Under the pieces are notes generated by a model that worked only from the letters and a program-made list of their open reading frames with translations, had not been told where the DNA came from and searched no databases. Below are positions 35,966 to 62,163 of a stretch of DNA of 64,000 nucleotides, one piece after another. Made by a program: the position numbers and the translations under genes. Source of the stretch: Pontibacter deserti. Its GTDB lineage: Bacteria; Bacteroidota; Bacteroidia; Cytophagales; Hymenobacteraceae. Location: contig NZ_JALPRS010000001.1 of assembly GCF_023630255.1 (NCBI RefSeq), positions 372,001-436,000 on the forward strand. Reading direction: 5' to 3'. Numbering within the stretch: position 1 is the stretch's first letter; every line of letters begins with the position of its first letter.

Positions 35966-36005
35966 ATGGTCTGCAAAAAAGACTGAAAATAATCCAACGA
36001 AAACG

Positions 36006-44435: not shown

Positions 44436-45080
44436 TTAATTGTATCGGATTGCAAATGAGCTTGGTCTGTTATTAAGATCCTCAACATTATCTTTTGATT
44501 TTCTTAAGTAACATATAAAGACATAGGATTTTCTAGTAAGCAATATTACAAATTCACCATAGCCAAAAAAGTTATTCTTTGGCATAAATTCTTGATGCAT
44601 TGTTTCTGATGCTCCAAGTAAATCATATAATGTGCCTCCAAACAGAAAGGGGCCAACATTACCTTTTGCTATAATAGCCTCTGAAGATTTAAAATGCTTA
44701 AATTCAGAAAGATCATTATAGTCACTACCATAAACTGGATGATTATACTTTTCACTACTTAGAATCTCATATCTTACAGAATCATTCATTTCAAAAGCTT
44801 TGGAAAGTATCAAACTACTATCAGCTTCATTCATGAAAATAAGGGCTTCTCTATCATCTTCATCTACAATAGACTTGTAACCATTTGGAATATATACATT
44901 AAGATTGTTCCTGTCAATCATTTCCAATTGCTCCTTAGTTAAAGAGTCAACCATTGAGGATTGGTTAAAAGGAAATTGATCTGCAACACTCAAGAAGTAA
45001 GTTGTTTTATTTATTGCCTTGTTTTCAGAGCAAGAAAAATGGATGAGGATTACGAATAGGTAGATGCAATACTTCTTCAT
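44436..45080 (-). CDS. Hypothetical lipoprotein, 214 residues
   Basis: Signal MKKYCIYLFVILIHFSC with C17 as probable lipid-modified residue. The rest has no domain I recognise (NNLNVYIPNGYKSIVDEDDREALIFMNEADSS ... FGYGEFVILLTRKSYVFICYL). It is the last gene of the minus-strand operon, 74 bases behind the previous gene, so membership is likely but not certain. Function unknown. Confidence 0.68.
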   Translation of the reverse strand: MKKYCIYLFVILIHFSCSENKAINKTTYFLSVADQFPFNQSSMVDSLTKEQLEMIDRNNLNVYIPNGYKSIVDEDDREALIFMNEADSSLILSKAFEMNDSVRYEILSSEKYNHPVYGSDYNDLSEFKHFKSSEAIIAKGNVGPFLFGGTLYDLLGASETMHQEFMPKNNFFGYGEFVILLTRKSYVFICYLRKSKDNVEDLNNRPSSFAIRYN

Positions 45081-45154
45081 TGTTTTCTAAGATTTTTAAT
45101 GCCATACCATTATAATTATGGAATGATCTGATAAGTAATTTGGAGACTAAAAAA

Positions 45155-45715
45155 TTACATAGGGCCTAATGAATAATCCGTAACTGTTCTATTCTGAACG
45201 TCATAAATCATTACATCACCTGCATAACAACAGTCAAAGGAAATTTCAAGGAAATCTAGAGTGTCTTGTTTGAAAGGTTCTACTGATTTTACTTCCATTT
45301 CGCAAAAGTTTCCGGTACTTGTTATTTTGTTTTCCTTTACATAGAGACATGCCTTATAAATGTATTCGTAGTTCTTCTTATTTGAATCAATTGAACTACA
45401 ATCGCAATTTTCTTTTTGTAATGCATCGTACTTATTTCTTATAATAATTAAAAGTACGACAGCAGTTATGATTAGAAAAGCTGAAATCAAAATTACAAAT
45501 GCCGTTTTAAACCAGGCCTTTTTTATCCTTTTTCGCTCTAAAAGTACTAGAAGTATAATAAAAGCTAGAAGTATAATGAAGTGTGAATTGAGAGTTAAGT
45601 TAACTGGAGAGCCTTCAATACATATGATTAATAGTAGATAGACTACAACATACATCTTCCAATTTAAAAATCTCTTTTTTAAAACTTTGATGTTTAATTC
45701 TTCTTTAGGTTCCAC
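45155..45715 (-). CDS. Hypothetical membrane protein, 186 residues
   Basis: Three membrane helices (about 20-36, 43-60, 70-92) followed by a soluble, presumably extracytoplasmic domain with six cysteines (NCDCSS, ACLYV, FCEME, DCCYAG). That density suggests disulfides. No family recognised. It lies 140 bases downstream of the kinase gene, same strand. Confidence 0.66.
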   Translation of the reverse strand: MEPKEELNIKVLKKRFLNWKMYVVVYLLLIICIEGSPVNLTLNSHFIILLAFIILLVLLERKRIKKAWFKTAFVILISAFLIITAVVLLIIIRNKYDALQKENCDCSSIDSNKKNYEYIYKACLYVKENKITSTGNFCEMEVKSVEPFKQDTLDFLEISFDCCYAGDVMIYDVQNRTVTDYSLGPM

Positions 45716-45855
45716 AAGTTTGTTGTTAAACTTTATTCCTTCGTGTTAATAATGTAATAGTGAGTTTGCATCTCAAAATTTAATTGAACTTTGTAAGACT
45801 CTTTTGATTAAAGAAAATGTAGTATTCGGATTTATACTTTTTTATAGTAGCAGGC

Positions 45856-47808
45856 TTAGTCTACATATTCACAAGAATAGGGTGTTACAATATTCTTCAT
45901 TTCTGTTATCATCCAAGTAGTTGTACCATCAGTAAAGTTTATTTTCTCAAGCTTAATATCTTGTTGATAGCATTTCATCCCACTGTATGGGTGGATTGTT
46001 GAATAATTGACTCTGAAAACTCCTTGAGACTCAGTTTGTTGTATGGAATTAGCCTTTTCTATATAAGCATCGTTAATTCCCCCAAAATTATAGTAATCAC
46101 AAAAGTCATCTTTGCCTTTGTCCTCCCATTCTTGAATAAAAGTTTTGAGCCAGACTGCGTCACAATCATTGTTACTTAAAGCCCAAAAGAATTGTAGCAT
46201 AGCTTGAGTAGCAGAATGTCCATTATCATCAAGATATGAACTTGAACTTGGAGACTGATAAATTTCACCAAGTGTTTTGGTGTAATCTAAGAATGAAATC
46301 GCATTTGTATCTGTAGTATCAACTTCTACAGCAGTAGTATCTACAACTGTTTCTTCAACAGTTGTTTCTTCCGTTTCATAAGCAATTTCTTCATTAGTAT
46401 CCGATTTAAAATCAGCTACTGCTATTGTTCCAAATATTATGACAGCTAATAAAGACCAAATTATGGTTGATGTATAATCTTTCTTTCTTACTGTTGGGGT
46501 TATATTTGTTTTTGGGGACGATGATATGTGAACATAAGTAGGGGAATTAATATGAGAAGCTGGCTGAGTTTCTGATTTATACTTATTTCTAACAGGTGAT
46601 ATAGGTTGTTCTTTAGAGAAGTTAATATCAATTCTTCTTAAGCTATCAGTTATCGTGCGTTGTTTAACTTGAGAGCCATAGGAAATAATAAGTGTCTTAC
46701 CCAGATATTGTTCTTTGTCAATTTTTAAGGGGGTTTCACCGATCTTTTGCAAAGTAGATTTTAGAACAGTAGCTCCCGCAGGACTGGATAAGATTTCAAT
46801 AAACCGAGAGGATAGCCTATCACCTTGTGAAGCTTCAGGATTGGCCTCTGCTAATGTTTCTGTCTTATTTACATTTTTCGGTGCAATAGACTGCTCAATA
46901 CTATAGAGTATTGGCTTATCAACTGAAGAAACAGGAGACTTACAGAAGTACTCTAAGCTGTTTAAATAAAAGGACAACGCTGGTTTATTGAGGTTATAGA
47001 GCCGCTGGACCAGCTTAGAGTTCCTGAAATTCTTGAAATCTTCACCAGTGAAAAGTAGGTTGTCGAGCGTATTATAACCTCCTTGCATCACTTCCAACCA
47101 AAGACTTTTGTCGTACTTCAGTGCTTCAAGTGCGCAGAGAATTACCCAAAATGAAAAGCGATCTATTTTCTCATTATAATAAGCCTGAGTTCTTTTAGGA
47201 TGCTGAAACTCGGAACGACCGTGCTCTAAATTCGTCTTGTTAGCAAATTCAGGTATATACAAGCCATCATAATCAATCAGCTTAATTACAGGATTACCTG
47301 AAGAATCTTTGGTTACAAGAACGTTACCACACTGTATGTCTCCATGGCCAATGGAGTGCTTCTCTAAGCTATCACTAACCTTAACAATTTGTTCCTGGAG
47401 CTTCGTTAAAATAGTATCGTTGTGCAGGTTATCTGAAATATACTTATTCAGAAGCTGTCCATTTACCCACTCCATTTTAACGACCGGGTAATAACGTCCA
47501 TGTACATCTATTTCATCTTCCAGAATCTCAATCTCGGTGCACCAGCTTTCATTAATGCCTTCCAGGTAGTTGCTAATGCTCCTATACCTATCTAGCGTTT
47601 CATTGTCAGCACTTATAAAACAACGAATGGCATACTCTTTAGACTGGGCTTTCGCTTTAAACACGACAGCATATGCACCTGAGCCATAGGAGTAAATTTT
47701 AACAGGAAGTGTGCGTGATGGTACAAAACTTAAACCATGCAAAGATCTGAAAGCATCTGTCCCATGAGTTTTGATAACCTGGTTATACTCAGCTATAGTT
47801 GGGAACAT
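45856..47808 (-). CDS. Atypical Ser/Thr protein kinase with PEGA domain and membrane helix
   Basis: 650 residues. The kinase domain (about 30-290) has a Gly-loop YGSGAYAVVF (41-50), YAIRCF with R62 where Lys is usual, the catalytic loop HGDIQCGNVLV (D157, N162) and LIDYDGLYIPEF with DYD for DFG. This matches the kinase of TerY/PP2C triads, where HGD and DYD are common. A PEGA domain (about 335-400; SSPAGATVLKST ... GETPLKI), one membrane helix (about 440-460) and a C-terminal extracytoplasmic domain of 150 residues follow. The PP2C stop and this start share one base (TAATG). It probably phosphorylates the motor, cytoskeletal or vWA proteins of the operon (inference). Arg at the Lys position may be normal for the family. 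Confidence 0.85.
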   Translation of the reverse strand: MFPTIAEYNQVIKTHGTDAFRSLHGLSFVPSRTLPVKIYSYGSGAYAVVFKAKAQSKEYAIRCFISADNETLDRYRSISNYLEGINESWCTEIEILEDEIDVHGRYYPVVKMEWVNGQLLNKYISDNLHNDTILTKLQEQIVKVSDSLEKHSIGHGDIQCGNVLVTKDSSGNPVIKLIDYDGLYIPEFANKTNLEHGRSEFQHPKRTQAYYNEKIDRFSFWVILCALEALKYDKSLWLEVMQGGYNTLDNLLFTGEDFKNFRNSKLVQRLYNLNKPALSFYLNSLEYFCKSPVSSVDKPILYSIEQSIAPKNVNKTETLAEANPEASQGDRLSSRFIEILSSPAGATVLKSTLQKIGETPLKIDKEQYLGKTLIISYGSQVKQRTITDSLRRIDINFSKEQPISPVRNKYKSETQPASHINSPTYVHISSSPKTNITPTVRKKDYTSTIIWSLLAVIIFGTIAVADFKSDTNEEIAYETEETTVEETVVDTTAVEVDTTDTNAISFLDYTKTLGEIYQSPSSSSYLDDNGHSATQAMLQFFWALSNNDCDAVWLKTFIQEWEDKGKDDFCDYYNFGGINDAYIEKANSIQQTESQGVFRVNYSTIHPYSGMKCYQQDIKLEKINFTDGTTTWMITEMKNIVTPYSCEYVD

Positions 47809-49208
47809 TATTCTTTAATTTCAGTAGGATCAGTCTGCTTTACTGAATCGGTTTTCTTAACTGTATTAACCTTTTGAGTTGATACTTTCTCTTCGCTTAG
47901 TTTGGCTTCCTGAGACTTTTGTTCTATAGTAGGTTTATCTGTTTTTTTATCTTCTGTTGGAGCTAGAGTTTCTTTTGACTTCGCTGTTGAAGTATTACGA
48001 ACTACAGGTTTTTCTATCTTAGGCTCAGGTGTAACAATTGCTTCTTTTTTAATGCTATTAGAATCAAGAATTACGGATGTCTCATTTGATAAAGGTTGAC
48101 TATTAGCAACCAATTTTAGTCTGTCAATTTCAGCTTGTAAATTGTTAATTGTTGCATCCCGCTCTGCAATAATGGCTGATTGGTTACTAGAGTCTTGTTT
48201 GGAAGCTCCGGGTTTTACAATAATGAAATAAGCGAATAGTAAAGTATTTAGTAGTACCAGTCCCACAAGTAATAATAGTATTGTTTGTTGAGACTTAGAA
48301 CTTTGTTTTACCTGGTGTAATTCATTACCAATTTGGTTAACAGAGTTTGTTATGTGTTGCATTTCGATTTCTGATAAATCGCTTGATTGGCTCAAGCTTG
48401 ATGGGTTTGAAACAAATGATGGTATAAATTCTGATTTTTTCTCTCTCGGAAAACTGAAGTCAATAGGGGGTGTTATTTCCGAAACTTTGTTGGAAGAAAA
48501 GTTATAGATAACTAAAGCTGTAATATCATCTTCTTCCAATTCTTTGCCATCCCACCGAGCTAAACAGAAGTCTTTAAAGCTATCAAAGTCTTCTATCTGA
48601 ATTAAGTCATGTATATAATTTGGGTGCTTCAGGAATAACCTGCTCAAAGCATCAGTAGCTAGCACAATTATAGACTCGTCTTGTAATGGTAGCTCTTTTT
48701 GCCAAAATATATTAGTCTCTGTTTCGTTGCTCAATAAACTCTCCGTGTTCAGGAAAAACTGATTTCTATCTAGAGCCTCCGCTGAGTCAAATGGGAAAGC
48801 ATTTGTTCCATCAGGGTTGATGATAAACAAATTTGAATCACCAACACTTGTAACATGGATTGCCTTATTACCTATAAGTTGTAAACCTAAAAATGTAGCA
48901 GTAGCGCCTTTTTTGAGTTTTTCTCGCTCAAGGGATGCCTTAGCAGGATTTGCGCTGAATTTGTAGTCCTGACACTTAAACTCACTTGCTTCTTGAGTAA
49001 AAGAAGCAAGCAATTTTGCACTGTCAAATTCGGGATTAGATATGAACTTCTGAGTAAGCAGCGAAGCCCAGACTTCGGAATTAAAACTTTGAGTTGTCCC
49101 GTCAGCAATGGCATAGACATGATCATTTGGTGAGATACCAAATTTGTCCTGAATAAACTTATACTCATAAGATGCCCGCTTATGAAGTTGGAAAACTTTG
49201 ATAGCCAT
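47808..49208 (-). CDS. PP2C-type phosphatase with membrane helix and charged tail
   Basis: 466 residues. PP2C core (1-240): ADGTTQSF with D36, GATATFLGLQL (101-111), VGDSNLF with D124, ATDALSR with D186 and EEDDITALV with D227/D228. The Mg/Mn-binding aspartates are all present, though the DGxGG motif is DGTTQ. A linker leads to one membrane helix (about 309-331) and a Lys/Glu/Thr-rich tail (about 345-466) that may span the periplasm. It reverses the kinase's action. Starts and stops of vWA, PP2C and kinase overlap by one base each, so they are translated in step. Confidence 0.87.
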   Translation of the reverse strand: MAIKVFQLHKRASYEYKFIQDKFGISPNDHVYAIADGTTQSFNSEVWASLLTQKFISNPEFDSAKLLASFTQEASEFKCQDYKFSANPAKASLEREKLKKGATATFLGLQLIGNKAIHVTSVGDSNLFIINPDGTNAFPFDSAEALDRNQFFLNTESLLSNETETNIFWQKELPLQDESIIVLATDALSRLFLKHPNYIHDLIQIEDFDSFKDFCLARWDGKELEEDDITALVIYNFSSNKVSEITPPIDFSFPREKKSEFIPSFVSNPSSLSQSSDLSEIEMQHITNSVNQIGNELHQVKQSSKSQQTILLLLVGLVLLNTLLFAYFIIVKPGASKQDSSNQSAIIAERDATINNLQAEIDRLKLVANSQPLSNETSVILDSNSIKKEAIVTPEPKIEKPVVRNTSTAKSKETLAPTEDKKTDKPTIEQKSQEAKLSEEKVSTQKVNTVKKTDSVKQTDPTEIKE

Positions 49209-50017
49209 TATTGCGGGGTACCAATATTTAAGAAGTTGATCAGGTCCGTTGCATTTCCGTTGAAAACATAGCCTTTCGCCCTATCATGTATATTATAGCC
49301 CTTTTGCTGCGCGATCCGAATCATGTTCTCATTTAATGGTGTAGAAATATCAAACAACAGCTGCGCAAATTTATCCTGTACCTCTGGTGTGTCATTAGGG
49401 AAAAGCACTCTATCACCAGTAGCGGAAGAAATATGAATATTTAAAATGCTCACCGGGCCATAGTTCGTACTAAGCATTTGTAATTGCTCAGCCTCTTTCT
49501 TAAGCAGATTAAAATCACGACCTGCATCTGTTGCTTCACCATCTGTTATATTAATGACAATAGGAGGGTGGCAGTCCCTATGATTTCCCCAATTTATCCA
49601 GTCCTGGCATAGTCTTCTAGCATTTTCAAAGGCTTTCGTCATCGGTGTAGCACTTTGTGCGTAAGGTTTAATCCAGATAGGTTTATCGTTTTCCTGACCA
49701 AGCGGGTATTCAAATATGTCGTTAATTGATACGACCCATTTATTGGTTAATTGACCTTCCCAACCTGATTGTACTTTATCACCATCTTTACCATAGCCGA
49801 GTATAGCTAGCTCAAAACGATTCTTAAGTTCTCCACCACTACCAATACATCTGAGACCTACTTCATAAATGACATCATTGATGGCATTTGCTAACTCCAC
49901 TGATTTACTATGAGAAGCATTACCAAATCTACCATCCATAGATCCACTCTGATCTATAAGATAAACTATAAGGCATGGATTTGTACTGCTTATAGTTAAG
50001 TTTCTAATATCAAACAT
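49208..50017 (-). CDS. TerY-type von Willebrand A protein, cytoplasmic
   Basis: 269 residues, no signal peptide. Complete MIDAS: D22-x-S24-x-S26 in VYLIDQSGSMDGRF, the Thr of SATPMTKAF, and the Asp of VINITDGEATDAG. The overall layout is that of TerY, the vWA partner in TerY-P triads with a kinase and PP2C (Anantharaman, Iyer and Aravind's description of Ter-linked systems). It probably forms a metal-dependent scaffold or is itself a phosphorylation target. The other Ter genes (TerB, C, D, Z) are absent nearby. Confidence 0.9.
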   Translation of the reverse strand: MFDIRNLTISSTNPCLIVYLIDQSGSMDGRFGNASHSKSVELANAINDVIYEVGLRCIGSGGELKNRFELAILGYGKDGDKVQSGWEGQLTNKWVVSINDIFEYPLGQENDKPIWIKPYAQSATPMTKAFENARRLCQDWINWGNHRDCHPPIVINITDGEATDAGRDFNLLKKEAEQLQMLSTNYGPVSILNIHISSATGDRVLFPNDTPEVQDKFAQLLFDISTPLNENMIRIAQQKGYNIHDRAKGYVFNGNATDLINFLNIGTPQ

Positions 50018-50031
50018 TGTGTTGTAAAATT

Positions 50032-50517
50032 TTATCTATAAAGTTCTCCGCTTTGATATTCACTTGTTGTGGTGCTTTGCGTAGTGTATTCCTGCGTTGG
50101 GGTAGCATGGTTGTTATGCCCACCACTGTAGCCACCCTGGTAGCCCTTTGTTGTATTTGGTGTTATGATTTGAGACTGATAGTTACTCCCAGGTGTAGCA
50201 CTTGAAGTGCCCTTTGGATTAGCTCCGTACTTATTCCAACCATTTTCTCCTTCAGAAAAGATGAGCCAAAGTACATAGAAGGGTATAATTTGCCACCAGC
50301 CATTATTTCCTAAATCATGGCAACGTTTTGCGCCTTGTGCCCATAAAAACCAAAGCATTGGTATATAAGCTAAACCAAGCAATGCTGTGTCGTCTGAGTA
50401 GTTGTCCGCTTCAAGAATTGTTGAAATAAAAGCTTGGGCAATAACATATAGAATAAAGCTTATGCCGAATTCAGTTCTTCTAATTCGGCCTTCAAATGAG
50501 AAAGGATTTTTAAACAT
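50032..50517 (-). CDS. DUF805 membrane protein
   Basis: 161 residues. MFKNPFSFEGRIRRTEF and GWWQIIPFYVLWLIFSEGENGWNKYGANPKG are the DUF805 signatures (FxGRxxRxeFw ... G.nkyG.dP). Three or four membrane helices, then a Gly/Ser/Thr/Gln-rich tail (about 115-161) that is probably disordered. Small inner-membrane family without known role. 14 bases before the vWA gene. Confidence 0.85.
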   Translation of the reverse strand: MFKNPFSFEGRIRRTEFGISFILYVIAQAFISTILEADNYSDDTALLGLAYIPMLWFLWAQGAKRCHDLGNNGWWQIIPFYVLWLIFSEGENGWNKYGANPKGTSSATPGSNYQSQIITPNTTKGYQGGYSGGHNNHATPTQEYTTQSTTTSEYQSGELYR

Positions 50518-50563
50518 GTTTGTTTGGATAAAAGTTGAACGTATGTATTGTTTAAAGCATATT

Positions 50564-51430
50564 TCAATAGTATTCTATGGTTCTTTTAACTAAAGTTTCT
50601 TGGTCATCAACTACAATTAACAATTCGGTCCAATTACCATTAATATCATAGTTATCATAGACAAGTCTAATTGGGCATTTAATACCTTCAGAAGTTTTAC
50701 TTATTCTATGATCTCTACTCCAATATTTGGTATCGATAACATTACCTCGAGAGTTATAAATGAACTCTAAACTATCTATAAATAGCCCTTGGTAATGCTC
50801 TACTTTATGTGTCAAAAGTGAATCATTGTAATAATATTTAAAGTGAGGATATTGTATGTTATGCTCCAAATATTCTACAGTATTTCCCATCTTATCTTTT
50901 ACTTCAAATGGCCCCCATAACTTACCTTCACGAGTAAGTACATCTGTATTCATTCTTTTATTTATTGTATCAACTGTATAGTAGACATTATTTGTTAATG
51001 TCCAATAACTATTTGGATAGGTATGGTAATTTGCCGTATGTATAATTTCACCTTCAGAATCTATATTATTAACTTTTACAAGCTGGTTTTGGCCGTTATA
51101 GTAATATAAAGATTCTCCACCTATATGGAGCCCATCCAGATCATTAGAATATCTGGTTTTAACTTTATTACCAGTTGAGTCAAAAAATGCTATAACATAT
51201 TTTGAAATCTTATTCTCTGAGTCAACATTGCCACTGCATTGGGATATGAATTGTGTAGGATTAAGATATTCAGTTTCTGTTGTTACAGACTTTACCTTTC
51301 CTCTCAAGTCATAGCTCCGAAGAACATTTCCATTATAAGGTTCAAGTTCTATGGATTCCTCACATGATAATAAAATTATTGAGGCACCTAAGAATGATAG
51401 TACTAGAGATAATTTATATATTATTTTCAA
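50564..51430 (-). CDS. Hypothetical lipoprotein with YD/RHS-like repeats
   Basis: 288 residues. Lipobox IILLSC, C23. Repeated beta-hairpin phrases (YDLRGKVKSVTTETEY; YYYNGQNQLVKVNNIDSEGEII; EFIYNSRGNVIDTKYW; YDINGNWTELLI) resemble the YD-type repeats found in Bacteroidetes lipoproteins and RHS shells. Likely on the periplasmic side of the outer membrane. 22 bases downstream of the protease gene. No enzyme motif. Confidence 0.72.
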   Translation of the reverse strand: MKIIYKLSLVLSFLGASIILLSCEESIELEPYNGNVLRSYDLRGKVKSVTTETEYLNPTQFISQCSGNVDSENKISKYVIAFFDSTGNKVKTRYSNDLDGLHIGGESLYYYNGQNQLVKVNNIDSEGEIIHTANYHTYPNSYWTLTNNVYYTVDTINKRMNTDVLTREGKLWGPFEVKDKMGNTVEYLEHNIQYPHFKYYYNDSLLTHKVEHYQGLFIDSLEFIYNSRGNVIDTKYWSRDHRISKTSEGIKCPIRLVYDNYDINGNWTELLIVVDDQETLVKRTIEYY

Positions 51431-51452
51431 AGGGTTATAGTTTAGATATAAA

Positions 51453-52211
51453 TTATAAACTCTTGCTAGTCAGATTCAGACGTTGAATATTGACTGCAAA
51501 ATTCAAGTTTGCTTCTCCTACACCTGATGTTGTGATGCCTATAACTTCACCACGCATGTTGAAGAGTGGACCACCACTACTGCCATTTGTTATTTCAGCA
51601 GTAGTTTGAATCAGCTTGTTGTCATCCCGATAACTGGAAACGATACCTGTTGAAAGTGTATGTTCAAGGCCTTTAGGATTCCCAATCGCAAAGACATCTT
51701 CACCAATTGCTGATAAGGACCTCGCAATAGGTACAAAGGGAACTTTATCACCTTGTGTGTTTACTTTGAAAAGTACGTAGTCAAGGTCGTTTGCATCGCT
51801 TGATCTTAATATTTTTGATACTTCGTAAGTAGTACCATCATACATTTTGATGTAATGGGTATGAAATCCACTAAAAACGTGCTGGTTGCTGATGCCAATA
51901 CCATCTGCTGATATGAAGAATCCGCTACCTTGCGCACCACTTTGGCCATCATTCGTAGATAAAACCAGGAATACTCCTTTTTTGCTCTTTTCGTAAAGTG
52001 AGCTCAAGCCAGAAGTGTTATTAACCTCGGTTACCGGTGTATTTCTAGCACCTCTTTCCGGTTTAATTCTATCAGGCCTTGCAGCTGGAATTAACCCTTC
52101 AGATTGTGCAGTCAACTGTCGTCGTTTCGATTCTTTTCCAGACCTTGAACAACCTGAACAACCGCTGAGCGAAATTAGTAAGCAAGCTAAAAGTATGGTT
52201 TGTAATTTCAT
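51453..52211 (-). CDS. Trypsin-like serine protease (S1C/DegP-type), lipoprotein, no PDZ
   Basis: 252 residues. Lipobox LISLSGC (C18). Protease domain from about 75: GSGFFISADGIGISNQHVF with H111, NDLDYVLF with D142, and ITNGSSGGPLF with S212, a complete triad with the GxSGGP motif. Unlike DegP or DegS there is no PDZ domain, and the protein ends soon after the fold. It is lipid-anchored and periplasmic. Being embedded in the operon, it may cut a partner of the complex or an incoming protein (inference). Confidence 0.9.
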   Translation of the reverse strand: MKLQTILLACLLISLSGCSGCSRSGKESKRRQLTAQSEGLIPAARPDRIKPERGARNTPVTEVNNTSGLSSLYEKSKKGVFLVLSTNDGQSGAQGSGFFISADGIGISNQHVFSGFHTHYIKMYDGTTYEVSKILRSSDANDLDYVLFKVNTQGDKVPFVPIARSLSAIGEDVFAIGNPKGLEHTLSTGIVSSYRDDNKLIQTTAEITNGSSGGPLFNMRGEVIGITTSGVGEANLNFAVNIQRLNLTSKSL

Positions 52212-52226
52212 GTTATTAACTACAAG

Positions 52227-52952: not shown

Positions 52953-52954
52953 AG

Positions 52955-54625: not shown

Positions 54626-54629
54626 AAAA

Positions 54630-55475
54630 TTAATTAAATCTGATTTTCACTTTTTCTTTCACATACCAGTCGTTACCCTGCTTGTGTACCACACCAGGGG
54701 TAAGTTGGCTTATGTTATTAAAACTGGTATAAAATGCGTTATCAAAGGCGCAGGCAGGTTTCAGAACTGTATCAGAGTAACTCCTTAATATATCATATTC
54801 CTCCGTAGTTGGCTCTAAGTAGAGCTTACCTACCGATGGTTCAGCAACAGCATATTCTATGCGATACACATAGCGGAATCTTTTTTCCTGAATTGCGTTA
54901 GTTTCCGAAAACACACGATCATCATAAGGTCCATCAAAAAACAGTGAGCTATTCTTGGGTAAGGCAGGTTTCGGCGTTATAGGCTCCTGCGCTTTAGGTT
55001 CAGGTGTCTTTGATTGGGGGTGTATCACTTCAGTTTGTATTGTTAGCTTTTCCTTTTCTCGTAATTGAGAAAGTTCAAGCTCTAGGTGAATAACTCTCTG
55101 TTTATAGGACTCCTTTATCTGTTCTAGCTTATCATAGCGTGCTTCAAGCTTTTCATACTTGTACTTGAAAGTACTTAAACTATATGACTCATTATTTGAA
55201 GTACTTTCTATCTTTCTTATACTCAAAGGTATTTCGTCTTCATTTTTAGACATATTAATTCTCTCATAATCATTAAATAGTCTATAAGCTAAAATAGAGT
55301 TGACTACAATAGCAACAAGTAAAATGACAGCGAAAATCAAATTCAGTAACCAACTAACAAGTCCTATTTTTATCCCTAAAACCAGCAGCAAAAAGATAAC
55401 TAAGCTACCTATAATTACTGTAATAGTCTGACTCTGTAGAGAGCCAGACTTACTTTTGCTTTTACGCTTTGCCAT
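54630..55475 (-). CDS. Coiled-coil inner-membrane protein, unknown family
   Basis: 281 residues. Basic start (MAKRKSKSKSGS), two membrane helices (about 15-36, 38-66), a coiled coil (about 100-145; KYEKLEARYDKLEQIKESYK), a Pro/Lys linker and a C-terminal beta-rich domain (about 180-281; FDGPYDDRVF ... GNDWYVKEKVKIRFN). The first 14 bases overlap the upstream actin-like gene, so it is translationally coupled. It may tether the ATPase to the membrane (inference). Confidence 0.75.
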   Translation of the reverse strand: MAKRKSKSKSGSLQSQTITVIIGSLVIFLLLVLGIKIGLVSWLLNLIFAVILLVAIVVNSILAYRLFNDYERINMSKNEDEIPLSIRKIESTSNNESYSLSTFKYKYEKLEARYDKLEQIKESYKQRVIHLELELSQLREKEKLTIQTEVIHPQSKTPEPKAQEPITPKPALPKNSSLFFDGPYDDRVFSETNAIQEKRFRYVYRIEYAVAEPSVGKLYLEPTTEEYDILRSYSDTVLKPACAFDNAFYTSFNNISQLTPGVVHKQGNDWYVKEKVKIRFN

Positions 55476-58400
55476 CTATAGAATCTTTTGCAAGTTTATT
55501 CAATAAGCCAACCAAGGGATAAAAGAAGAGCGTTTCTTCAACAGCTGTCACATCATCGCTGTCAAGTTCTTTCTGTTTCTCGCCTAATCCGCGCATTAAG
55601 TAATTCATCAAATCATGATCACCATTCTCAATTACTTCATCGATAACATTAAGGGATGTTTGACTTACATCGAACTTGTTTTTAAAATTGATTTCCTTAT
55701 GTAACTCCAAGAAGAGCTCTAAGAAGTGCAGTACTTCATCTACTACGCCTTGAACGTGTTCGTCCGATTTGCTTAAATCCCGGTAAGAGTACTTAAGTGC
55801 ATTACTTGATGTATCATAGGGTCTTAGCAGACCAATTTCAAGAGTACTTCCAAGTGACACAACAGTCAAATCTTCTAGGCTAATGCCATCGTAAGCACTA
55901 GTGTATAATCCACCCTTAGCTGTAATTTCTTTAGGGTTGGGTTCAATCTTTATTTCAGTTTTTACCTTACTCTGCTCACCAGATACCTTCTCAAATATTT
56001 TGTTGAATAGCAACGATAGATTTGTTTGATTACTAGTATTATCGGCTATAAAAGCTGTTTTAGAGCCAGACCCGCTAAGTAATAATATTGATGGCTTATC
56101 AAAACCAGCAGCGTGCATCACCTTAGACATGTGATAGAATACTGCACTGTAGTAAAGTAAGAAAACTAGTTTTAAGTCCTGGTCATTAGCTAACTCTGTA
56201 GCAAAATCTATTTTAACATTATTTTGTGTTAATGTTTTGTTATTAGTTAAGCTAAACAAAAAGTTAATAATGTCTTCGGAGTTTCTGCTAACAGATAGTT
56301 GCTCAAGCACATTGTACAAGTTGTCGGAATTTGATTTTACAAGTTCACGATACTTATCCAAATGCTTCTTAAGGAAACCATTTGTAGCCATGCTGCCGCC
56401 ATAACCATCTCCAAAGATTGCATTTCCAGCAAACTTAAAAGAAGTTAGGAGTTGAGGCCTATCTTCCTTATAAACAACCAAATCAGCAGTACCACCGCCA
56501 ATATCCAATGATGCTACAGGCAATGAATGAGCTGTAACACCTGCTTCGTTATTGTAGAAATAGAAAGGAGCGAGGCTTTCAGGTAGACTGTTCATAGCTT
56601 CTACAACTCTAAATCCAAATATCTCCTGTACTTTACCGCGCCATACCTGTCCTAAAGCATTGATCTTATTTTCGCCCATACTGGATGGGTAGAACCAGGT
56701 AATCTTAGTTTCTTCTAAATTACCATCGTTTAACAATACTTTGTTTCGAAGCAGTATAAGGATGTGCTCAATATAGTGTTCTAGCTGCTTTCTGTTTTCG
56801 TTGTCGTTATAGTTACTCCACTTTATGTTAGTTTTATGATTTAAGTGTGGCTGAATCTGGGATTTCTCGAAATCAAAGGCAATGTTATAGTGGTTGTAAG
56901 TATATGTACCATGATTAACATTGACATTCTTATTGTAAAGAACAACTGTACGCATCGGCAATTTATAGTCATTCGAACCATCATTTATTGTCTCTGGCAA
57001 TAACTCATGACTGAATTGGAAATAAAACTGCCTAACCAGTGCAGATTTTTCATTCGGATCAAAAGAATAGGCTATCTGTGATTCCTCTTTTTCTACCTTA
57101 AATGGTCTGCTGTCTCTTTCGTTTTGCTTTTTATATTCTATATGAGTGTTTGAAGTACCAAAATCGATTGCAAAACTAAATTGGTTGTTTCCAGATTCGT
57201 ACTTCTTAAATTCAGGAATAAGGAAACCATGCATGCTGGCATCTACTTGTAGCTGTACATAGTCAAAGTTATCTTGCACTACATAGTATTGAGACGATGC
57301 CCCCTTATTTAAGCGCGTGTTATTAAATTTGGCATCGACTCTAAATCCATTAGAATCATAAAGTTGTAAATCAACATTTCGAGAAGGCATACCATTCACA
57401 ATACCAATTCTATAATCTTTGTGTGAAAAGTCACCCTTAACAAGTGGTGTAATTGCTAATGCCAAATCAGCATCAACCAAAATACCATCATGCTCGCCTA
57501 AACCTGACATACCGCCAATGTTCGTAACTGTAGATGGTCTTTTATAAATCTTGCTATACGTGATTTTATTAACACCTCTGCTCCCCGTAATTGGAATATG
57601 AAGTCTTACTTCAACCGACTGTTTCTGCTCTATAATTTCTATAAGCTTTTGGCTAGTCAGCTCTTCTTTAGTAAAATATTCAAAGAAAGTAGGTTTAATG
57701 GGCAATAGATAGTTTTTGCCAAGCGTGTAGAATTTGTTGCTATTTAATTGGTAAGGCACTTTTATGAGGTGATCTTCCAAAAAGTCAGCCTGCGTCAGGT
57801 AAGGATACTGATCCCTTACGTGCGGTAGACGGCGTAACTCTATTGGCGTATCATCGCGGCGCGGAGCAGGTGTAGCAGGGTTCCATTTTTCAACAGTATA
57901 GGTAAGTTCGAAATTGAAACGCTCTACCGGCAGAACTAATGGCGATAAGAGCTTTCCGTTTACCTCAATCTGCTTAGGACTTGCAATGGCGAAGTCGCTC
58001 TGTATACTCTCTGGATTGGCACTATACTTATAAAGTGGCAGATCAGATAAAGCATGCACTGTATCGCCAGCGTTGCCTCTAATATGTAGGTACTGTAATC
58101 CTGAAAAATAATCGTTGACATCTAATGTGTTAAGCACATTAAACAAGTCTTTATTTTCCTTTGAAAGTTTTTTTACTGTAAGGTCAATATACTGGTATAG
58201 CTCCTTAAAGGTCCTGGCAAAATTGTCCTTTTTGGATAGAGCATACATATATTTGATGTATTTCGGCTCACGCTGGTACAATGGCAAGTAATGATCATCT
58301 AACATGATGTCATTTCCAAACCGGATGTCTACATGTAATTTGTCGTTGTCAGGTTTACTATCGTTGTATGGTGCTGCAAAAAACAACGTAGTAGGAGATA

Positions 58401-58872
58401 CTCCACCAATTACATGGTGATTATATTTTAGGATATAGAAATTATCAACTTTGTCAAAGTTAAACTGTATATCCTGACTGATAAACAATTCTAGCGTTTC
58501 GGCTAACGCTTTATGCTCTGGATGAGTTGAAGCTTTAAGGGTGTTAAGTTGATCCCATTTGTTCCAGGCAATTAACTCTAAGTCATCACTGTTGATGTCA
58601 TAATTAAATAGTATTTGCCCAATATCTAAAGCATCAGACACTAGTTTATGGTGATAGGTGTTGCCATCTATACCATTAACATTAACGAAGTGAAAAGCTG
58701 ACCTCACCAGATCCATTCTTGCAAAAGGAGATGGAATAGAAGTTGGAAGGATATTAACTTGGTTATCGTTATCTTTTATTGTCTGTACAATGTTGCCACC
58801 TGGCTCTAATGATGGAAACCAATCTGACTCAGTTGGACCGGCATTATGGATGCGGAATACTTTCTTGCTCAT
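55462..58872 (-). CDS. Giant protein with actin/Hsp70-type ATPase domain
   Basis: 1136 residues, no signal peptide. Residues 1-560 form a unique region, beta-rich in places (VRLHIPITGSRG). The ATPase domain begins at FAIDFGTSNTHIEYK (phosphate-1 loop, D570), has the connect region around 690, ASLDIGGGTADLVVYK (phosphate-2, D790) and SILLLSGSGSKTAF (adenosine motif, about 930). These are the diagnostic motifs of the actin/Hsp70/StbA superfamily, and all key residues are present. The large N-terminal addition is not one I know. It stands between the tubulin-like protein and the membrane components, and is probably an ATP-driven filament or switch. Confidence 0.85.
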   Translation of the reverse strand: MSKKVFRIHNAGPTESDWFPSLEPGGNIVQTIKDNDNQVNILPTSIPSPFARMDLVRSAFHFVNVNGIDGNTYHHKLVSDALDIGQILFNYDINSDDLELIAWNKWDQLNTLKASTHPEHKALAETLELFISQDIQFNFDKVDNFYILKYNHHVIGGVSPTTLFFAAPYNDSKPDNDKLHVDIRFGNDIMLDDHYLPLYQREPKYIKYMYALSKKDNFARTFKELYQYIDLTVKKLSKENKDLFNVLNTLDVNDYFSGLQYLHIRGNAGDTVHALSDLPLYKYSANPESIQSDFAIASPKQIEVNGKLLSPLVLPVERFNFELTYTVEKWNPATPAPRRDDTPIELRRLPHVRDQYPYLTQADFLEDHLIKVPYQLNSNKFYTLGKNYLLPIKPTFFEYFTKEELTSQKLIEIIEQKQSVEVRLHIPITGSRGVNKITYSKIYKRPSTVTNIGGMSGLGEHDGILVDADLALAITPLVKGDFSHKDYRIGIVNGMPSRNVDLQLYDSNGFRVDAKFNNTRLNKGASSQYYVVQDNFDYVQLQVDASMHGFLIPEFKKYESGNNQFSFAIDFGTSNTHIEYKKQNERDSRPFKVEKEESQIAYSFDPNEKSALVRQFYFQFSHELLPETINDGSNDYKLPMRTVVLYNKNVNVNHGTYTYNHYNIAFDFEKSQIQPHLNHKTNIKWSNYNDNENRKQLEHYIEHILILLRNKVLLNDGNLEETKITWFYPSSMGENKINALGQVWRGKVQEIFGFRVVEAMNSLPESLAPFYFYNNEAGVTAHSLPVASLDIGGGTADLVVYKEDRPQLLTSFKFAGNAIFGDGYGGSMATNGFLKKHLDKYRELVKSNSDNLYNVLEQLSVSRNSEDIINFLFSLTNNKTLTQNNVKIDFATELANDQDLKLVFLLYYSAVFYHMSKVMHAAGFDKPSILLLSGSGSKTAFIADNTSNQTNLSLLFNKIFEKVSGEQSKVKTEIKIEPNPKEITAKGGLYTSAYDGISLEDLTVVSLGSTLEIGLLRPYDTSSNALKYSYRDLSKSDEHVQGVVDEVLHFLELFLELHKEINFKNKFDVSQTSLNVIDEVIENGDHDLMNYLMRGLGEKQKELDSDDVTAVEETLFFYPLVGLLNKLAKDSIDGKA

Positions 58873-58888
58873 AGCTGGATATACTATT

Positions 58889-60373
58889 TTAGATACCTAT
58901 TTTTTCTATCAATACCTCTGCTGTCGCATCGTAGAAGCTTTTGACGAATTTCGTTTCATTTGGCAAAGCAGTGTAGCGGGTATAAGTTTTTGAAACTCTA
59001 TCTTCCACTAATGTTAGCTTTGCATCTTTTTTAAACATAAGTTTCTTTTTCGGCTCATACCCTTCGATAAGTTCCAAAGCATTATCAAAGTCAACACTGT
59101 GGTTAAATGGCTTAAATGAAGGGGTGTTATCTTCTAACTCGTTTAGCCATTCATCATAATTTTGTATGAACTTGTTGAAAGAGTTCGTGTAGTAGTAAGA
59201 TTTAAAAAAAGATTTTGGTACACCTCTGTGTTTCTCTTCTAACCATATAGTGGAAGCACTCATTGCCTTAGGCAAACCTAATTTTAGGTACTTAGAGAAA
59301 AGCGAAAGTTGAGCTAATGGTTTAGTCAAATAAGTAAATGATTCATAACCTAAAGATTTAAAAGTTAGGCTTACATCTTTACTCTCAATTCCAAACTCTT
59401 TATAGGTAGGGTTATCTGCTTGGCCGTTTGTTGTAGATAAGTTGTTAGCTTCTGCTGCAAAGTTTAGTATAGCTAAAGCACCTGCTAATTCAACAAAGTG
59501 GGCGTTGTTTTTCTGTTTATCTTTCCCATCAAAGTTGTCATACATACCGCCATCTTCGTCTCCTATATAATAAAAACTGTTAAGGCGTTTATCAGCTACA
59601 ATAGTTCGTTCATAATACGCTAAGGCTGCTTTTGACTTACCAAGAAATGAAGATGAGTCTATCTCACTTCCTGTTGCTTCTCCGGATTTTAATTTAAAAT
59701 AGGGTAGAACAGTCAGTGCACCAATAACCGCATTTCTAACTTGGAAGGTCTTACCATCTGCTGCATTCATTTCTCTTAAGTTTTTAAGAAGTAGGGGGAA
59801 GCCTGATGCTCCGGTTCCTCCGAAAATTGAGCTGATGATGAAGATGCGGTCGTTGTTACCGAAACTATCTAAAAACTGTGTAAACTCTTCACTTTGTGTG
59901 AACTGATTTAGTACTACACTGCCAATATTCGGATTGCCTTTGAAGCCAACATCCATGTCTGCAGCCAGGTTATGGGCTGAGAATAATAGGTCTATAAAAG
60001 CTTTACTATTGTTATCTAAGCTATTATAGCCTATATAGTCCCGGAATTTCTGACTGTGTGTACCATTTATTTCAAATTTAAAATTATCAGAAATATCTGT
60101 CTGGCTTGCTCCTGTTAATTGAGAGAGTGTTTTGATCTTAACATTAAAGAACCCGCTTTCCTCATTTTCAAAAGGTTTTTTTATCTCCTGATATTTGGTT
60201 AGCATATCTGCTGTACGGTTCATGTCTCCATTTGCAGAGTCCGGATCAATGATGATTGGAACAACAGTATCAATACTGTCATCTAATTTAACACCAGCTG
60301 CCAGCATCATTGTAAATGCACGTAAGACCCTTGAACCGGTGCCACCAATACCGAATATGTAAAGTTTTGCCAT
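58889..60373 (-). CDS. Tubulin/FtsZ-superfamily GTPase-like protein
   Basis: 494 residues, cytoplasmic. The N-terminus MAKLYIFGIGGTGSRVLRAF carries the first nucleotide loop (G10-G11-T12-G13-S14). RIFIISSIFGGTGASGFPLLLKNLR carries the tubulin signature-like loop (G185-G-T-G-A-S-G191) corresponding to GGGTGSG of FtsZ/tubulin. This fits the 'tubulin-like' families near FtsZ described by Makarova and Koonin next to vWA and OmpA proteins. The C-terminal part (about 300-494) is family-specific. Polymerisation is possible but unproven. 16 bases upstream of the actin-like gene. Confidence 0.85.
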   Translation of the reverse strand: MAKLYIFGIGGTGSRVLRAFTMMLAAGVKLDDSIDTVVPIIIDPDSANGDMNRTADMLTKYQEIKKPFENEESGFFNVKIKTLSQLTGASQTDISDNFKFEINGTHSQKFRDYIGYNSLDNNSKAFIDLLFSAHNLAADMDVGFKGNPNIGSVVLNQFTQSEEFTQFLDSFGNNDRIFIISSIFGGTGASGFPLLLKNLREMNAADGKTFQVRNAVIGALTVLPYFKLKSGEATGSEIDSSSFLGKSKAALAYYERTIVADKRLNSFYYIGDEDGGMYDNFDGKDKQKNNAHFVELAGALAILNFAAEANNLSTTNGQADNPTYKEFGIESKDVSLTFKSLGYESFTYLTKPLAQLSLFSKYLKLGLPKAMSASTIWLEEKHRGVPKSFFKSYYYTNSFNKFIQNYDEWLNELEDNTPSFKPFNHSVDFDNALELIEGYEPKKKLMFKKDAKLTLVEDRVSKTYTRYTALPNETKFVKSFYDATAEVLIEKIGI

Positions 60374-60380
60374 AGCTTAA

Positions 60381-60803
60381 TTAGAATTTTAAAGGGAAAG
60401 GGTTAGCCTTATTTTTAGTACTACCAATGCGTATAATAAAGCTTGAAAGGACTGAGAAAATAAATGCGTAAAATGCAGTAATGAGTGACATGTTCAGAAT
60501 GAATGATTCTGTATCAGGGTACGCGCTGTTATCAACAAATTGAATTAGTGTATTAGTTAAATAAGAATACCCTATAACAGCTGCTATAATAGCGGAAATG
60601 ATGACTATAAATATCCATTGGTACCATCTACCATAAGTGGGGTTCCAGGCATAGTAGAAAAGTGACATGAAAATAAGTGAGCTGAGAATAATTATAGCCC
60701 CTAAATATGTGTATCCACTATAGTTGTGTGAATCAAATAGAAAGATTGAAAATTCATCATGGTATTCAAACCAATCATAAAGCATGGCAAAAAAGCTGTT
60801 CAT
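60381..60803 (-). CDS. Small inner-membrane protein, 140 residues
   Basis: Three membrane helices (about 32-53, 62-85, 105-128) with a polar N-terminus (MNSFFAMLYDWFEYHDEF). No domain recognised. It sits one base after the vWA lipoprotein gene and 7 bases before the tubulin-like gene, so it is firmly part of the operon. Confidence 0.75.
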   Translation of the reverse strand: MNSFFAMLYDWFEYHDEFSIFLFDSHNYSGYTYLGAIIILSSLIFMSLFYYAWNPTYGRWYQWIFIVIISAIIAAVIGYSYLTNTLIQFVDNSAYPDTESFILNMSLITAFYAFIFSVLSSFIIRIGSTKNKANPFPLKF

Positions 60804-60804
60804 A

Positions 60805-62163
60805 TTATTGTTGGATGTTTAATGGTATATTTATGTAATGCTGTGTGTTGGAAACTTTATTATAAGCTCTGTCTATAGCTCCGACCAAGTAATTAAATCC
60901 AAGCGTTGTTTTCTCATCTCCTTTAATTTTTGTGTCATCTAAAGTGTGCGTTTGACCTATCCAAGTAGGAAGCTGTTTTTTCAAAGCTAATTTTAAGCTA
61001 CCGTAGGGATTCTTGGTGGTTTGAAGCGTAATGAGATGAGAATATTGGTTATTAGCCAATTTGTTTTTCTGTGTAGGAGTAAGTTTACTAACTTCTTGGA
61101 CATTAGATATGACGTAATCTGAATTATCCAGAATCTCATAATTTGCTTTATTCAGCAAGTAGCTTTTTTGTACAGGTAGATTAGATAGATTAACCCCTAT
61201 TGTAAACTGAAAGTCTTTTGACCTTCTGTCTTTTTCTGCATTTGTAATATGGCTAGGTCTCAGATTAGGGTTTTGGTGTGACCTAAAAGTACCCTTATTC
61301 ATTAACCCAGGAATAATTTGATACCTGACATTTTTATTCGCTGTAGTATTAAAAACAAAATGATTTTGGTATCCTGGTAAATTGCTAAAATTCAATGCAT
61401 TTTGTATAGTTGCTATGCTGCCAGCAGAGCCAAAAAGCCAAATGTAATAAGGACGTTTCTGGTCAATATTTATACCCTTGCCTTGTACAGGATAATAGTT
61501 TCCTTTAAACTGAGAATTTAATTTAATTAATACTGTTTGAAGATTTTTATCTTTCTTCAATCGGTTCTCAAAATGCTTTGCTGTAAAATTTGACTCTGAT
61601 TCAAGTTGTCCCAGTACACTAGTTGGGCTCCCTTTTACAGAGTATATGCCATCTGTAACTAAAATTCCAACATCCTGACGGTTTGTACTATCAAGAACCG
61701 TTTTTAAGATAAGGTTAAGGTCGCTAGTATTTATATTTCCTTTATTTATACCAGCTTCTGTTAAGGATGAAGTAACCTTCTCAGGTTTTGATACAAACTT
61801 ATGAAGAGCCGTATTAATTAGATAGGCATTAAAGCTTTTGTAATTAGTTTCGCTTAAAAGTCTAGAAATTGCAGTTTTTATCTCATAATGTTCAGAGATA
61901 TAACCATTCATGCTGCCGGAATTTTCGAAGAAAAACCGAAGCTTGTTTATCGCTGATGCTTGTACAGCTGGCTCAGCTATAGATGTTTCGTCAGGAGTAG
62001 GAGTAATGTTAGTATCTGTTACCTTGACTTCTGATTCAATACCTTCATCTATTTGCTTTTGTCCAGCATTTGTTTCTGCTTCTTGTCTGGCTTTATCACG
62101 AGGGCTTTCACAAGCCATCCACGATAAGCTAGCTACAAGTATGTAGTGAGGTATTCTTGTCAT
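60805..62163 (-). CDS. vWA-like lipoprotein
   Basis: 452 residues from the ATG at 62163. The frame is open to 62280, but MTRIPHYILVASLSWMACESP is a clear lipoprotein signal (C18). An acidic, Pro/Thr-rich linker (about 20-70) leads to a vWA fold: KLRFFFENSGSMNGY, in which the MIDAS D-x-S-x-S reads E80-x-S82-x-S84, and VGILVTDGIYS with the third-site Asp. The C-terminal part (about 250-452) is unknown. It lies on the periplasmic side, in contrast to the cytoplasmic TerY-type protein. First gene of the tight operon. Confidence 0.78.
   Translation of the reverse strand: MTRIPHYILVASLSWMACESPRDKARQEAETNAGQKQIDEGIESEVKVTDTNITPTPDETSIAEPAVQASAINKLRFFFENSGSMNGYISEHYEIKTAISRLLSETNYKSFNAYLINTALHKFVSKPEKVTSSLTEAGINKGNINTSDLNLILKTVLDSTNRQDVGILVTDGIYSVKGSPTSVLGQLESESNFTAKHFENRLKKDKNLQTVLIKLNSQFKGNYYPVQGKGINIDQKRPYYIWLFGSAGSIATIQNALNFSNLPGYQNHFVFNTTANKNVRYQIIPGLMNKGTFRSHQNPNLRPSHITNAEKDRRSKDFQFTIGVNLSNLPVQKSYLLNKANYEILDNSDYVISNVQEVSKLTPTQKNKLANNQYSHLITLQTTKNPYGSLKLALKKQLPTWIGQTHTLDDTKIKGDEKTTLGFNYLVGAIDRAYNKVSNTQHYINIPLNIQQ

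What the first reader, a model, noticed from the sequence alone, without database searches (positions are those of the whole stretch)
44436..62163. Candidate new envelope-spanning system: motor + tubulin-like + actin-like + kinase/phosphatase/vWA operon
Seen: some 15 minus-strand genes in 17.7 kb, mostly 1-46 bases apart or overlapping, combining a tubulin-like GTPase, an actin/Hsp70-type ATPase, a MotA/MotB-like pair, two vWA proteins, a PP2C, a kinase, a lipid-anchored protease and further lipoproteins. Known: TerY-vWA, kinase and PP2C form the TerY-P triad; ZorA/ZorB form an ion-driven anti-phage motor; an FtsZ-like family has been described beside vWA and OmpA-type proteins as a putative membrane-remodelling system (Makarova and Koonin). 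I know of no described system that joins all these. Inference: a sensor at the wall or outer membrane drives an ion motor, whose tail controls cytoplasmic filaments under phospho-control, for phage defence, contact killing or envelope repair. Presence beside an integrase-bearing element supports an accessory role.
Basis: partly seen in the sequence, partly recalled or inferred. Interest (0 to 1): 0.93.

Follow-up and report, generated by a model that had tools for sequence, protein, structure and literature searches.

The report
Motor-driven tubulin–actin envelope defence system
Seven genes found in the same order across many Bacteroidota encode a Zorya-like pair predicted to be an ion motor together with tubulin-like and actin-like proteins, and the proteases and nucleases encoded beside them in about half of the loci, predicted to sit outside the inner membrane, suggest that the whole likely defends the cell by attacking phage DNA or protein as it crosses the envelope.

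Summary
The 15 minus-strand genes are real and most domain calls hold, but they are not one 15-gene system. A seven-gene core (vWA-fold lipoprotein, 3-TM protein, tubulin-like, actin-like, coiled-coil membrane protein, MotA-like, MotB-like) keeps strand and order in 66 of 66 loci holding all seven. The motor pair's nearest solved relatives are Zorya ZorA/ZorB. TerY-P with DUF805 is a separable module: none of 48 other core genomes has TerY on the core's contig. The new clue is a swapping slot after the core: within 4 kb, 41 of 80 loci encode a protease of three classes (37) and/or a nuclease of three folds (19), against 0 of 94 upstream flanks. The window's locus lies between an integrase and McrBC-like, type I restriction and Shedu-like genes. 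Best reading: an envelope-anchored, motor-driven defence machine whose hydrolases act outside the cytoplasm. No bench evidence exists. The window's copy has a protease but no recognised nuclease; a second copy in the same genome, of the host family's own lineage, has no slot hydrolase (the main counter-evidence).

The parts
60805..62163 (-). V: lipoprotein with predicted vWA fold (MIDAS-like ENSGSM), core gene 1
   Evidence: in 96 of 96 loci with room upstream
60381..60803 (-). t: small membrane protein, three TM helices by hydropathy, core gene 2
   Evidence: 3 TM in 92 of 101 members; 94 of 96 loci
58889..60373 (-). [not shown]
55462..58872 (-). A: actin/FtsA/MreB-like ATPase (motifs between residues 570 and 940) with a roughly 560-residue N-terminal region of unknown fold, core gene 4
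   Evidence: 82 of 84 loci
54630..55475 (-). c: membrane protein with a coiled coil (read by eye) and a C-terminal domain, core gene 5
   Evidence: 79 of 84 loci
52955..54625 (-). MA: MotA/ExbB/ZorA-like subunit with a cytoplasmic tail of about 340 residues and an extra C-terminal TM helix, core gene 6
   Evidence: 68 of 84 loci
52227..52952 (-). MB: MotB/ZorB-like subunit, one TM helix with invariant Asp13 and an OmpA-like domain, core gene 7
   Evidence: 64 of 84 loci
51453..52211 (-). P: predicted lipoprotein with CSGCSRSG motif and trypsin-like serine protease domain; occupant of the swapping hydrolase slot
50564..51430 (-). Lipoprotein without Pfam family, at the place where some relatives have a nuclease; no relative found in the loci compared
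50032..50517 (-). DUF805 membrane protein; found beside TerY-P in L132 too
49208..50017 (-). TerY vWA protein of the TerY-P triad
47808..49208 (-). PP2C phosphatase of the TerY-P triad
45856..47808 (-). Ser/Thr kinase (STK_OB-like) of the TerY-P triad
45155..45715 (-). Small membrane protein, no family above cut-off; probably not part of the core
44436..45080 (-). Lipoprotein, no family; probably not part of the core
36006..37178 (+). Tyrosine integrase (PF00589) on the left of the island

Best explanation
A conserved seven-gene core (a lipoprotein of predicted vWA fold, a three-TM protein, a tubulin-like protein, an actin-like protein, a coiled-coil membrane protein and a ZorA/ZorB-like pair predicted to form an ion motor), here joined by a protease predicted to be lipid-anchored and by a TerY-P triad, likely works as an envelope-spanning defence machine whose hydrolases would attack phage DNA or protein during entry. 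Predicted course, each step inferred: MotB-like anchors to peptidoglycan through its OmpA-like domain; damage or contact at the wall or outer membrane, read by V and MotB, opens the ion path at Asp13; the MotA-like ring turns and its cytoplasmic tail acts on Z and A, nucleotide-driven polymerising or switch proteins under the membrane; the state is passed through c and t to the lipoprotein hydrolases. Where relatives have a nuclease, the protease would activate or cooperate with it, so that DNA in the periplasm is treated as foreign while the chromosome stays out of reach. In the window's copy only the protease is recognised, and the TerY-P triad adds a separately known antiviral module. Shown: gene order, families, slot swapping, island context. 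Not shown: motor activity, polymers, location and activity of the hydrolases, any phage phenotype.
For: Core: 66 of 66 loci with all seven genes keep strand and order, median gaps 4-21 bases. Reciprocal linkage: 85 of 92 MotA-like hits in 390 genomes of the order lie 5.9-9.8 kb from a Z gene. Motor: MotB profile to ZorB (8vvn_B) E 6.4e-16, MotA profile to ZorA (8vvn_C) E 8.8e-9 (8VVN named in PMC11890865). Slot: of 80 loci with at least 1.5 kb past the core, 41 encode within 4 kb a protease (37) and/or a nuclease (19; both in 15); 0 of 94 upstream flanks do. Pfam confirmed the classes on representatives; L034 fuses a trypsin and an Endonuclease_NS domain. In 36 of these 41 the first slot gene starts within 80 bases of the core's end, in 11 with a 4-base overlap. 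On the Z tree at least 7 changes of protease class and 7 of nuclease class. Of 41 slot-family proteins 34 have a lipobox-like stretch; these have almost no acidic residue after the Cys (mean 0.09 in +2..+7), unlike surface-export signals as I recall them. Context: McrC-like, McrB-like, HsdR, Shedu-like, HsdS and HsdM genes to the right, integrase to the left. In other genomes an N6-methyltransferase lies within 15 kb of Z in 6 of 48 against 0.87 expected. Patchy spread: 7 of 296 genomes of the phylum, own included; 17 of 36 others of the genus. TerY-P is reported to act against T7-like phages (PMC7699616, one passage).
Against: 39 of 80 loci have none of the six hydrolase classes, among them the Hymenobacter loci (7 of which have a prolyl-oligopeptidase gene after MotB, one confirmed by Pfam, not counted) and the window genome's own second copy L022, whose neighbours look like housekeeping genes. 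42 of 127 Z genes in the order have no MotA-like gene within 15 kb, so the motor is optional. The window's own copy has no recognised nuclease. PADLOC, a library of defence proteins, gives no hit for Z, t or V nor for A, c or MA. The methyltransferase test used a distance chosen after seeing the data and a uniform null. Motor and nuclease could not be shown to go together beyond kinship (5 independent pairs). The upstream control used HMMs seeded from the downstream genes. The McrB and McrC matches are below NCBIfam cut-offs.
Confidence: 0.47

Rival explanations
1. An envelope-maintenance or membrane-remodelling machine (the Makarova-Koonin view): motor and cytoskeletal-type proteins reshape or repair the inner membrane and wall, and the proteases and nucleases are quality-control or accessory enzymes.
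For: Z occurs in 125 of 390 genomes of the order, 74 of the 125 in the host's family; the L022 copy sits beside housekeeping-type genes and has no slot hydrolase. Published neighbourhoods of FtsZ-like 1 genes hold vWA and OmpA-type proteins and were read as membrane remodelling (PMC2875224).
Against: Patchy spread over the phylum (7 of 296), restriction neighbours and swapping nucleases of three folds fit repair poorly.
Confidence: 0.25
2. A nutrient-scavenging system: lipoprotein proteases and nucleases digest polymers at the cell surface or in the periplasm, and the ExbB-like motor powers uptake.
For: Bacteroidota use lipoprotein hydrolases for feeding (recalled); the MotA-like protein weakly matches exbB2 (7.3e-5).
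Against: I recognised no TonB-dependent transporter or SusD-like gene by eye among the 25 largest clusters of neighbours, but did not search for them by family; tubulin-like and actin-like proteins have no evident place in uptake; slot lipoproteins lack acidic residues after the Cys; restriction neighbours.
Confidence: 0.1
3. A contact-dependent weapon: the machine pushes lipoprotein nucleases and proteases into neighbours.
For: Swapping enzymes of toxin-like kinds and envelope-spanning parts.
Against: No immunity gene was apparent beside the slot (not searched for systematically); most slot enzymes keep lipoprotein signals; no delivery protein is recognised in the window's genes.
Confidence: 0.07
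4. The window's 15 genes work as one phospho-controlled system: kinase, PP2C and TerY regulate Z, A or the motor.
For: Gaps across the junction are short (22 and 46 bases), and the minus-strand terminator-like sites listed fall inside genes.
Against: TerY is on the core's contig in 0 of 48 other core genomes searched and stands alone with DUF805, PP2C and kinase in L132; none of the 120 TerY relatives listed shares the contig lengths of the six nearest Z relatives.
Confidence: 0.11

Closest known systems
Zorya (ZorA/ZorB motor; PMC11890865, abstract and passages seen)
   Same: Nearest solved relatives of both motor subunits; one-TM MotB-like with conserved Asp and OmpA-like peptidoglycan-binding-type domain; MotA-like with a long cytoplasmic tail; nucleases encoded beside the motor in 19 of 56 loci.
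   Different: No ZorC, ZorD or ZorE found in the window's 15 genes; tubulin-like, actin-like and vWA-fold lipoprotein instead; the nucleases carry lipoprotein or membrane-anchor-type N termini, are predicted outside the cytoplasm and are mostly paired with proteases; the window's MotA-like has an extra C-terminal TM helix.
FtsZ-like 1 (FtsZl1) putative membrane-remodelling neighbourhoods, Makarova and Koonin 2010 (PMC2875224, parts 1 and 2 of 5 read)
   Same: Tubulin_2 protein with vWA and OmpA-type proteins, in some genomes kinases; a Bacteroides caccae sequence is in their alignment.
   Different: Their text names a P-loop GTPase; none is found here. In the parts read it does not name a motor pair, an actin-like ATPase or a protease-nuclease slot; some neighbours there are unnamed families that could include these.
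GAP1-N2 GTPase-centric conflict systems, Kaur et al. 2020 (PMC7159879, section 29 and passages seen)
   Same: Tubulin, HSP70, vWA and kinase/PP2C/vWA parts occur as themes of membrane-linked conflict systems.
   Different: Built on TRAFAC GTPases and GAP1, mainly in actinobacteria, firmicutes, planctomycetes, verrucomicrobia and chloroflexi; the three themes are said not to overlap; MotA, ExbB and TolR do not occur in that paper's text.
TerY-P triad (PADLOC models; PMC7699616, one passage seen)
   Same: All three proteins match PADLOC models here.
   Different: Only a neighbour of the core; DUF805 added, as in Polaribacter L132.

Membership tests
Zorya | ZorA/ZorB-type motor pair | tested here: met
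   Family profiles: 8vvn_B 6.4e-16, 8vvn_C 8.8e-9; PADLOC ZorB1 1.6e-11 for MotB; no PADLOC hit for the MotA-like protein.
Zorya | NCBIfam ZorB1 equivalog cut-off | tested here: not met
   17.2 bits against 400.
Zorya | ZorC+ZorD or ZorE effectors | tested here: not met
   No PADLOC ZorC/D/E hit in the 15 genes (10, 5).
Zorya | 5:2 rotary complex with ion flow | not testable with these tools
   Needs structure or physiology.
FtsZl1 putative system | Tubulin_2 (PF13809) FtsZ-like protein | tested here: met
   28.6 bits against 27; PF13809 equated with this group in PMC9871819 (passages).
FtsZl1 putative system | vWA protein in the operon | tested here: met
   [not shown]
FtsZl1 putative system | diverged P-loop GTPase (frequent, not universal) | tested here: not met
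   No P-loop GTPase family in the 15 genes (Pfam).
FtsZl1 putative system | extended coiled coil and helical C-terminal domain in the FtsZ-like protein | tested here: inconclusive
   Helices at 343-372, 393-415, 454-467 and 472-492 in the model; no extended coiled coil seen, not measured further.
FtsZ/tubulin superfamily | GTPase-domain fold with T1 and T4 glycine loops | tested here: met
   [not shown]
FtsZ/tubulin superfamily | T7 catalytic loop and polymer-forming C-terminal domain | tested here: inconclusive
   Listed matches end by residue 370 of the model, most by 358; no canonical T7 motif recognised by eye in A1.
Actin/Hsp70/FtsA ATPases | phosphate-1 and phosphate-2 motifs | tested here: met
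   DFGTSNT at 570, DIGGGTAD at 790; D570, G572, T573, D790, G792, G793, D797 invariant in 35 sequences; FtsA at E <= 0.1 in 31 of 35.
GAP1-N2 GTPase-centric systems | TRAFAC GTPase plus GAP1 component | tested here: not met
   No GTPase family of the P-loop kind in the operon; for GAP1 no model was searched.
TerY-P triad | TerY, PP2C and STK genes together | tested here: met
   1.3e-51, 6.4e-23, 3e-62, adjacent with 1-base overlaps.
TerY-P triad | antiphage activity | not testable with these tools
   Bench test needed.

The most novel reading that the evidence does not exclude
This is a new class of bacterial immunity that works outside the cytoplasm: a Zorya-type motor, tethered to the wall and coupled to dedicated tubulin-like and actin-like NTPases, senses envelope breach and unleashes periplasmic protease-nuclease pairs, so that foreign DNA is recognised by the compartment it is in and not by its sequence or marks. 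The slot after the motor is its interchangeable warhead.
Probability: 0.33. Interest if true: 0.95.

Novelty: categorically new. Interest (0 to 1): 0.85.

Why it matters
It would join two fields. Bacterial tubulin-like and actin-like proteins of unknown function would gain a job, and ion-driven motors in immunity would gain a second, outward-facing kind beside Zorya. It also offers an answer to how a nuclease can attack phage DNA without endangering the chromosome: keep it on the other side of the membrane. The open question of what Tubulin_2 proteins do becomes testable in named Bacteroidota strains.

Tried and rejected
Rejected: one 15-gene system (TerY-P is separable). Rejected: the motor as an obligatory part (42 of 127 Z genes have no MotA-like gene within 15 kb). 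The extra C-terminal TM helix of the window's MotA-like protein was first taken for a family hallmark, but 17 of 72 members have four predicted TM helices and 49 have three. A link between motor and nuclease could not be separated from kinship. No hit for Z in phage records; 3 plasmid records, one covering at least 80% of Z, a 1.77-Mb record; 3 viral contigs with relatives, not examined for being real viruses. Promoter- and terminator-like sites are near chance (77 against 68.3; 11 against 10.3). Pfam did not find vWA in V. A GTPase component was looked for in the Pfam results of the window's genes and not seen. A's N-terminal region, c and t were not folded, since both jobs went to Z and V. 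Some MAG titles outside Bacteroidota (Williamsia, Sulfuricurvum, Leptospiraceae and others) branch among Bacteroidota on the Z tree and are probably mis-binned; not tested. An earlier count said 20 of 36 same-genus genomes; the count is 17 of 36.

L078/L142 and L108/L109 are identical or nearly so in Z, and Hymenobacter and Spirosoma are over-represented. Family HMMs were built on these same loci. Counts over genomes include the window's own: 7 of 296, 125 of 390, and TerY 3 of 59 and 13 of 296. Two of 50 loci offered (L072, L081) were not held and not searched. Drafts on separate contigs do not exclude linkage outright; the TerY regions of the three genomes were read over up to 9.5 kb each side and show no core gene.
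Full report
What is in the window. Fifteen minus-strand genes run from 62163 down to 44436. From the first lipoprotein to the kinase the neighbours are -14 to +46 bases apart, followed by gaps of 140 and 74. G+C is 0.358 against 0.434 left of base 36000. Two rounds of Pfam and one of PADLOC give: Tubulin_2 (PF13809, above its cut-off), weak SrfB/FtsA matches in the 1136-residue protein, MotA_ExbB and OmpA/MotB_plug below cut-off, Trypsin_2, DUF805, kinase, PP2C, and PADLOC TerY, STK_OB and PP2C.

Distribution. Z at E <= 1e-20 occurs in 7 of 296 genomes drawn over the phylum and 125 of 390 of the order, the window's own included, and (at E <= 0.001) in 17 of 36 other genomes of the genus. On the Z tree (quick search, SH-aLRT) the window groups with a Nafulsella protein and five others of the protein database (7 rows, support 99), far from the genus's own copy L022, which sits with the Hymenobacter clade. 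So the window's copy is a second, probably acquired, lineage.

The swapping slot. The gene after MB (or after c where MB is missing) is in many loci a predicted lipoprotein with a C-x-x-C-S-[RK]-S-G motif. In the window it is the trypsin-like protein. Read across loci and checked by Pfam on representatives, the same place holds gag-type aspartyl proteases (PF13975), transglutaminase-like proteins (PF01841) or trypsins, and in the same or a following gene Endonuclease_NS (PF01223), SNase (PF00565) or an Exo_endo_phos protein (PF03372); L034 fuses trypsin and Endonuclease_NS. By NCBIfam, all below cut-off, L043's SNase is nearest thermonuclease NucI, and L037's DNase I-like protein matches a general endonuclease/exonuclease/phosphatase family first and the extracellular ExeM/NucH family second. 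Of 80 loci with 1.5 kb past the core, 37 hold such a protease, 19 a nuclease, 15 both, 39 none of the six classes; of 94 upstream flanks none holds any. The HMM seeds came from the downstream genes, so this control tests background, not blindness. In 36 of the 41 the first slot gene starts within 80 bases of the core's end, in 11 with a 4-base overlap. Nucleases occur in 19 of 56 loci whose last core gene is MB and in none of the other 24, but kinship makes this untestable. The Z tree needs at least 7 changes of protease class and 7 of nuclease class. The slot lipoproteins with a lipobox-like stretch (34 of 41) have 0.09 acidic and 1.47 basic residues on average after the Cys. Surface export in Bacteroidota uses acidic signals, as I recall, so a periplasmic place is likelier. 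Seven Hymenobacter loci carry instead a prolyl-oligopeptidase gene after MB (L091 confirmed by Pfam); such enzymes are common, and I did not count them.

TerY-P. TerY occurs in 3 of 59 relatives and 13 of 296 genomes of the phylum, own included, and in 3 of 48 other core-holding genomes, in none on the contig of the core. Of ten TerY regions read, L132 (Polaribacter IC066) has DUF805-TerY-PP2C-kinase highly like the window's, standing alone. None of the 120 TerY proteins listed shares the contig lengths 12004, 37789, 12311 or 11983 on which both Z and MA relatives lie (linkage by equal contig length is an inference). TerY-P is reported to act against T7-like phages (PMC7699616, one passage).

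Island. Left of the operon is a tyrosine integrase. Right of it, on the same strand, are McrC- and McrB-like genes (74 and 110.7 bits, below NCBIfam cut-offs), HsdR, a Shedu (SduA)-like gene, HsdS and HsdM, then a helicase and, further on, housekeeping GAPDH (my reading). In 48 other core genomes an N6-methyltransferase lies within 15 kb of Z in 6, against 0.87 expected from uniform placement, P about 0.0002. The 15 kb was set after seeing the distances (largest 12.2 kb), and defence genes cluster, so the P is generous.

Reading. The simplest account of a wall-anchored Zorya-like motor, nucleotide-binding cytoskeletal-type proteins, a vWA-fold lipoprotein and interchangeable protease-nuclease lipoproteins near restriction genes is defence at the envelope. 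The main facts against it are the copies without such a slot in Hymenobacter and in the host, and the lack of any phenotype. The novelty grade rests on the joined composition: membership in Zorya and in the GTPase-centric systems failed on tested features, while the tubulin, vWA and OmpA-type parts overlap with the published FtsZl1 neighbourhoods. Searches of the paper library listed no paper that I recognised as joining these parts; only openly licensed papers are held, so a description elsewhere is possible.

Noticed in passing
L022 (own genome, C1:1562000-1581999): A second core copy without recognised slot hydrolase or TerY-P, beside housekeeping-type genes; it belongs to the family's own lineage.
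   Followed up: partly
L155 (right of the window): Restriction island: McrBC-like genes and type I R-M with a Shedu-like gene inside; G+C swings between about 0.34 and 0.55 along it.
   Followed up: partly
L070:17860-19707, L067, L080, L084: A 579-616 residue membrane protein with a DRTGS stretch, vWA-like by eye, no Pfam family, stands between MotA-like and MotB-like in four loci.
   Followed up: partly
L151:14937-16478: A very divergent core (long Z branch) is followed by an Hsp70 protein (PF00012, 3.4e-76) in the place of motor genes.
   Followed up: partly
L086, L087, L089, L091, L102, L105, L106 (Hymenobacter): A prolyl-oligopeptidase gene follows MotB on the same strand; whether it belongs to the slot is open.
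   Followed up: partly
L140:15775-17355 and relatives: Some loci without motor carry a WG-repeat protein after c or the aspartyl protease.
   Followed up: no
L072, L076, L150: Zinc-ribbon or SH3_3 proteins follow c or MotA in place of the usual slot gene.
   Followed up: partly
L107-L109: Three IMG/VR contigs carry core genes; whether they are viral or host DNA was not examined.
   Followed up: no
window:62584-63918: A 444-residue protein without Pfam family above cut-off lies between the operon and the restriction genes; no relative in the loci compared.
   Followed up: no
window:27412-32618: A starch-use locus (SusE, SusG-type amylase, esterase with CBM20) precedes the integrase.
   Followed up: no
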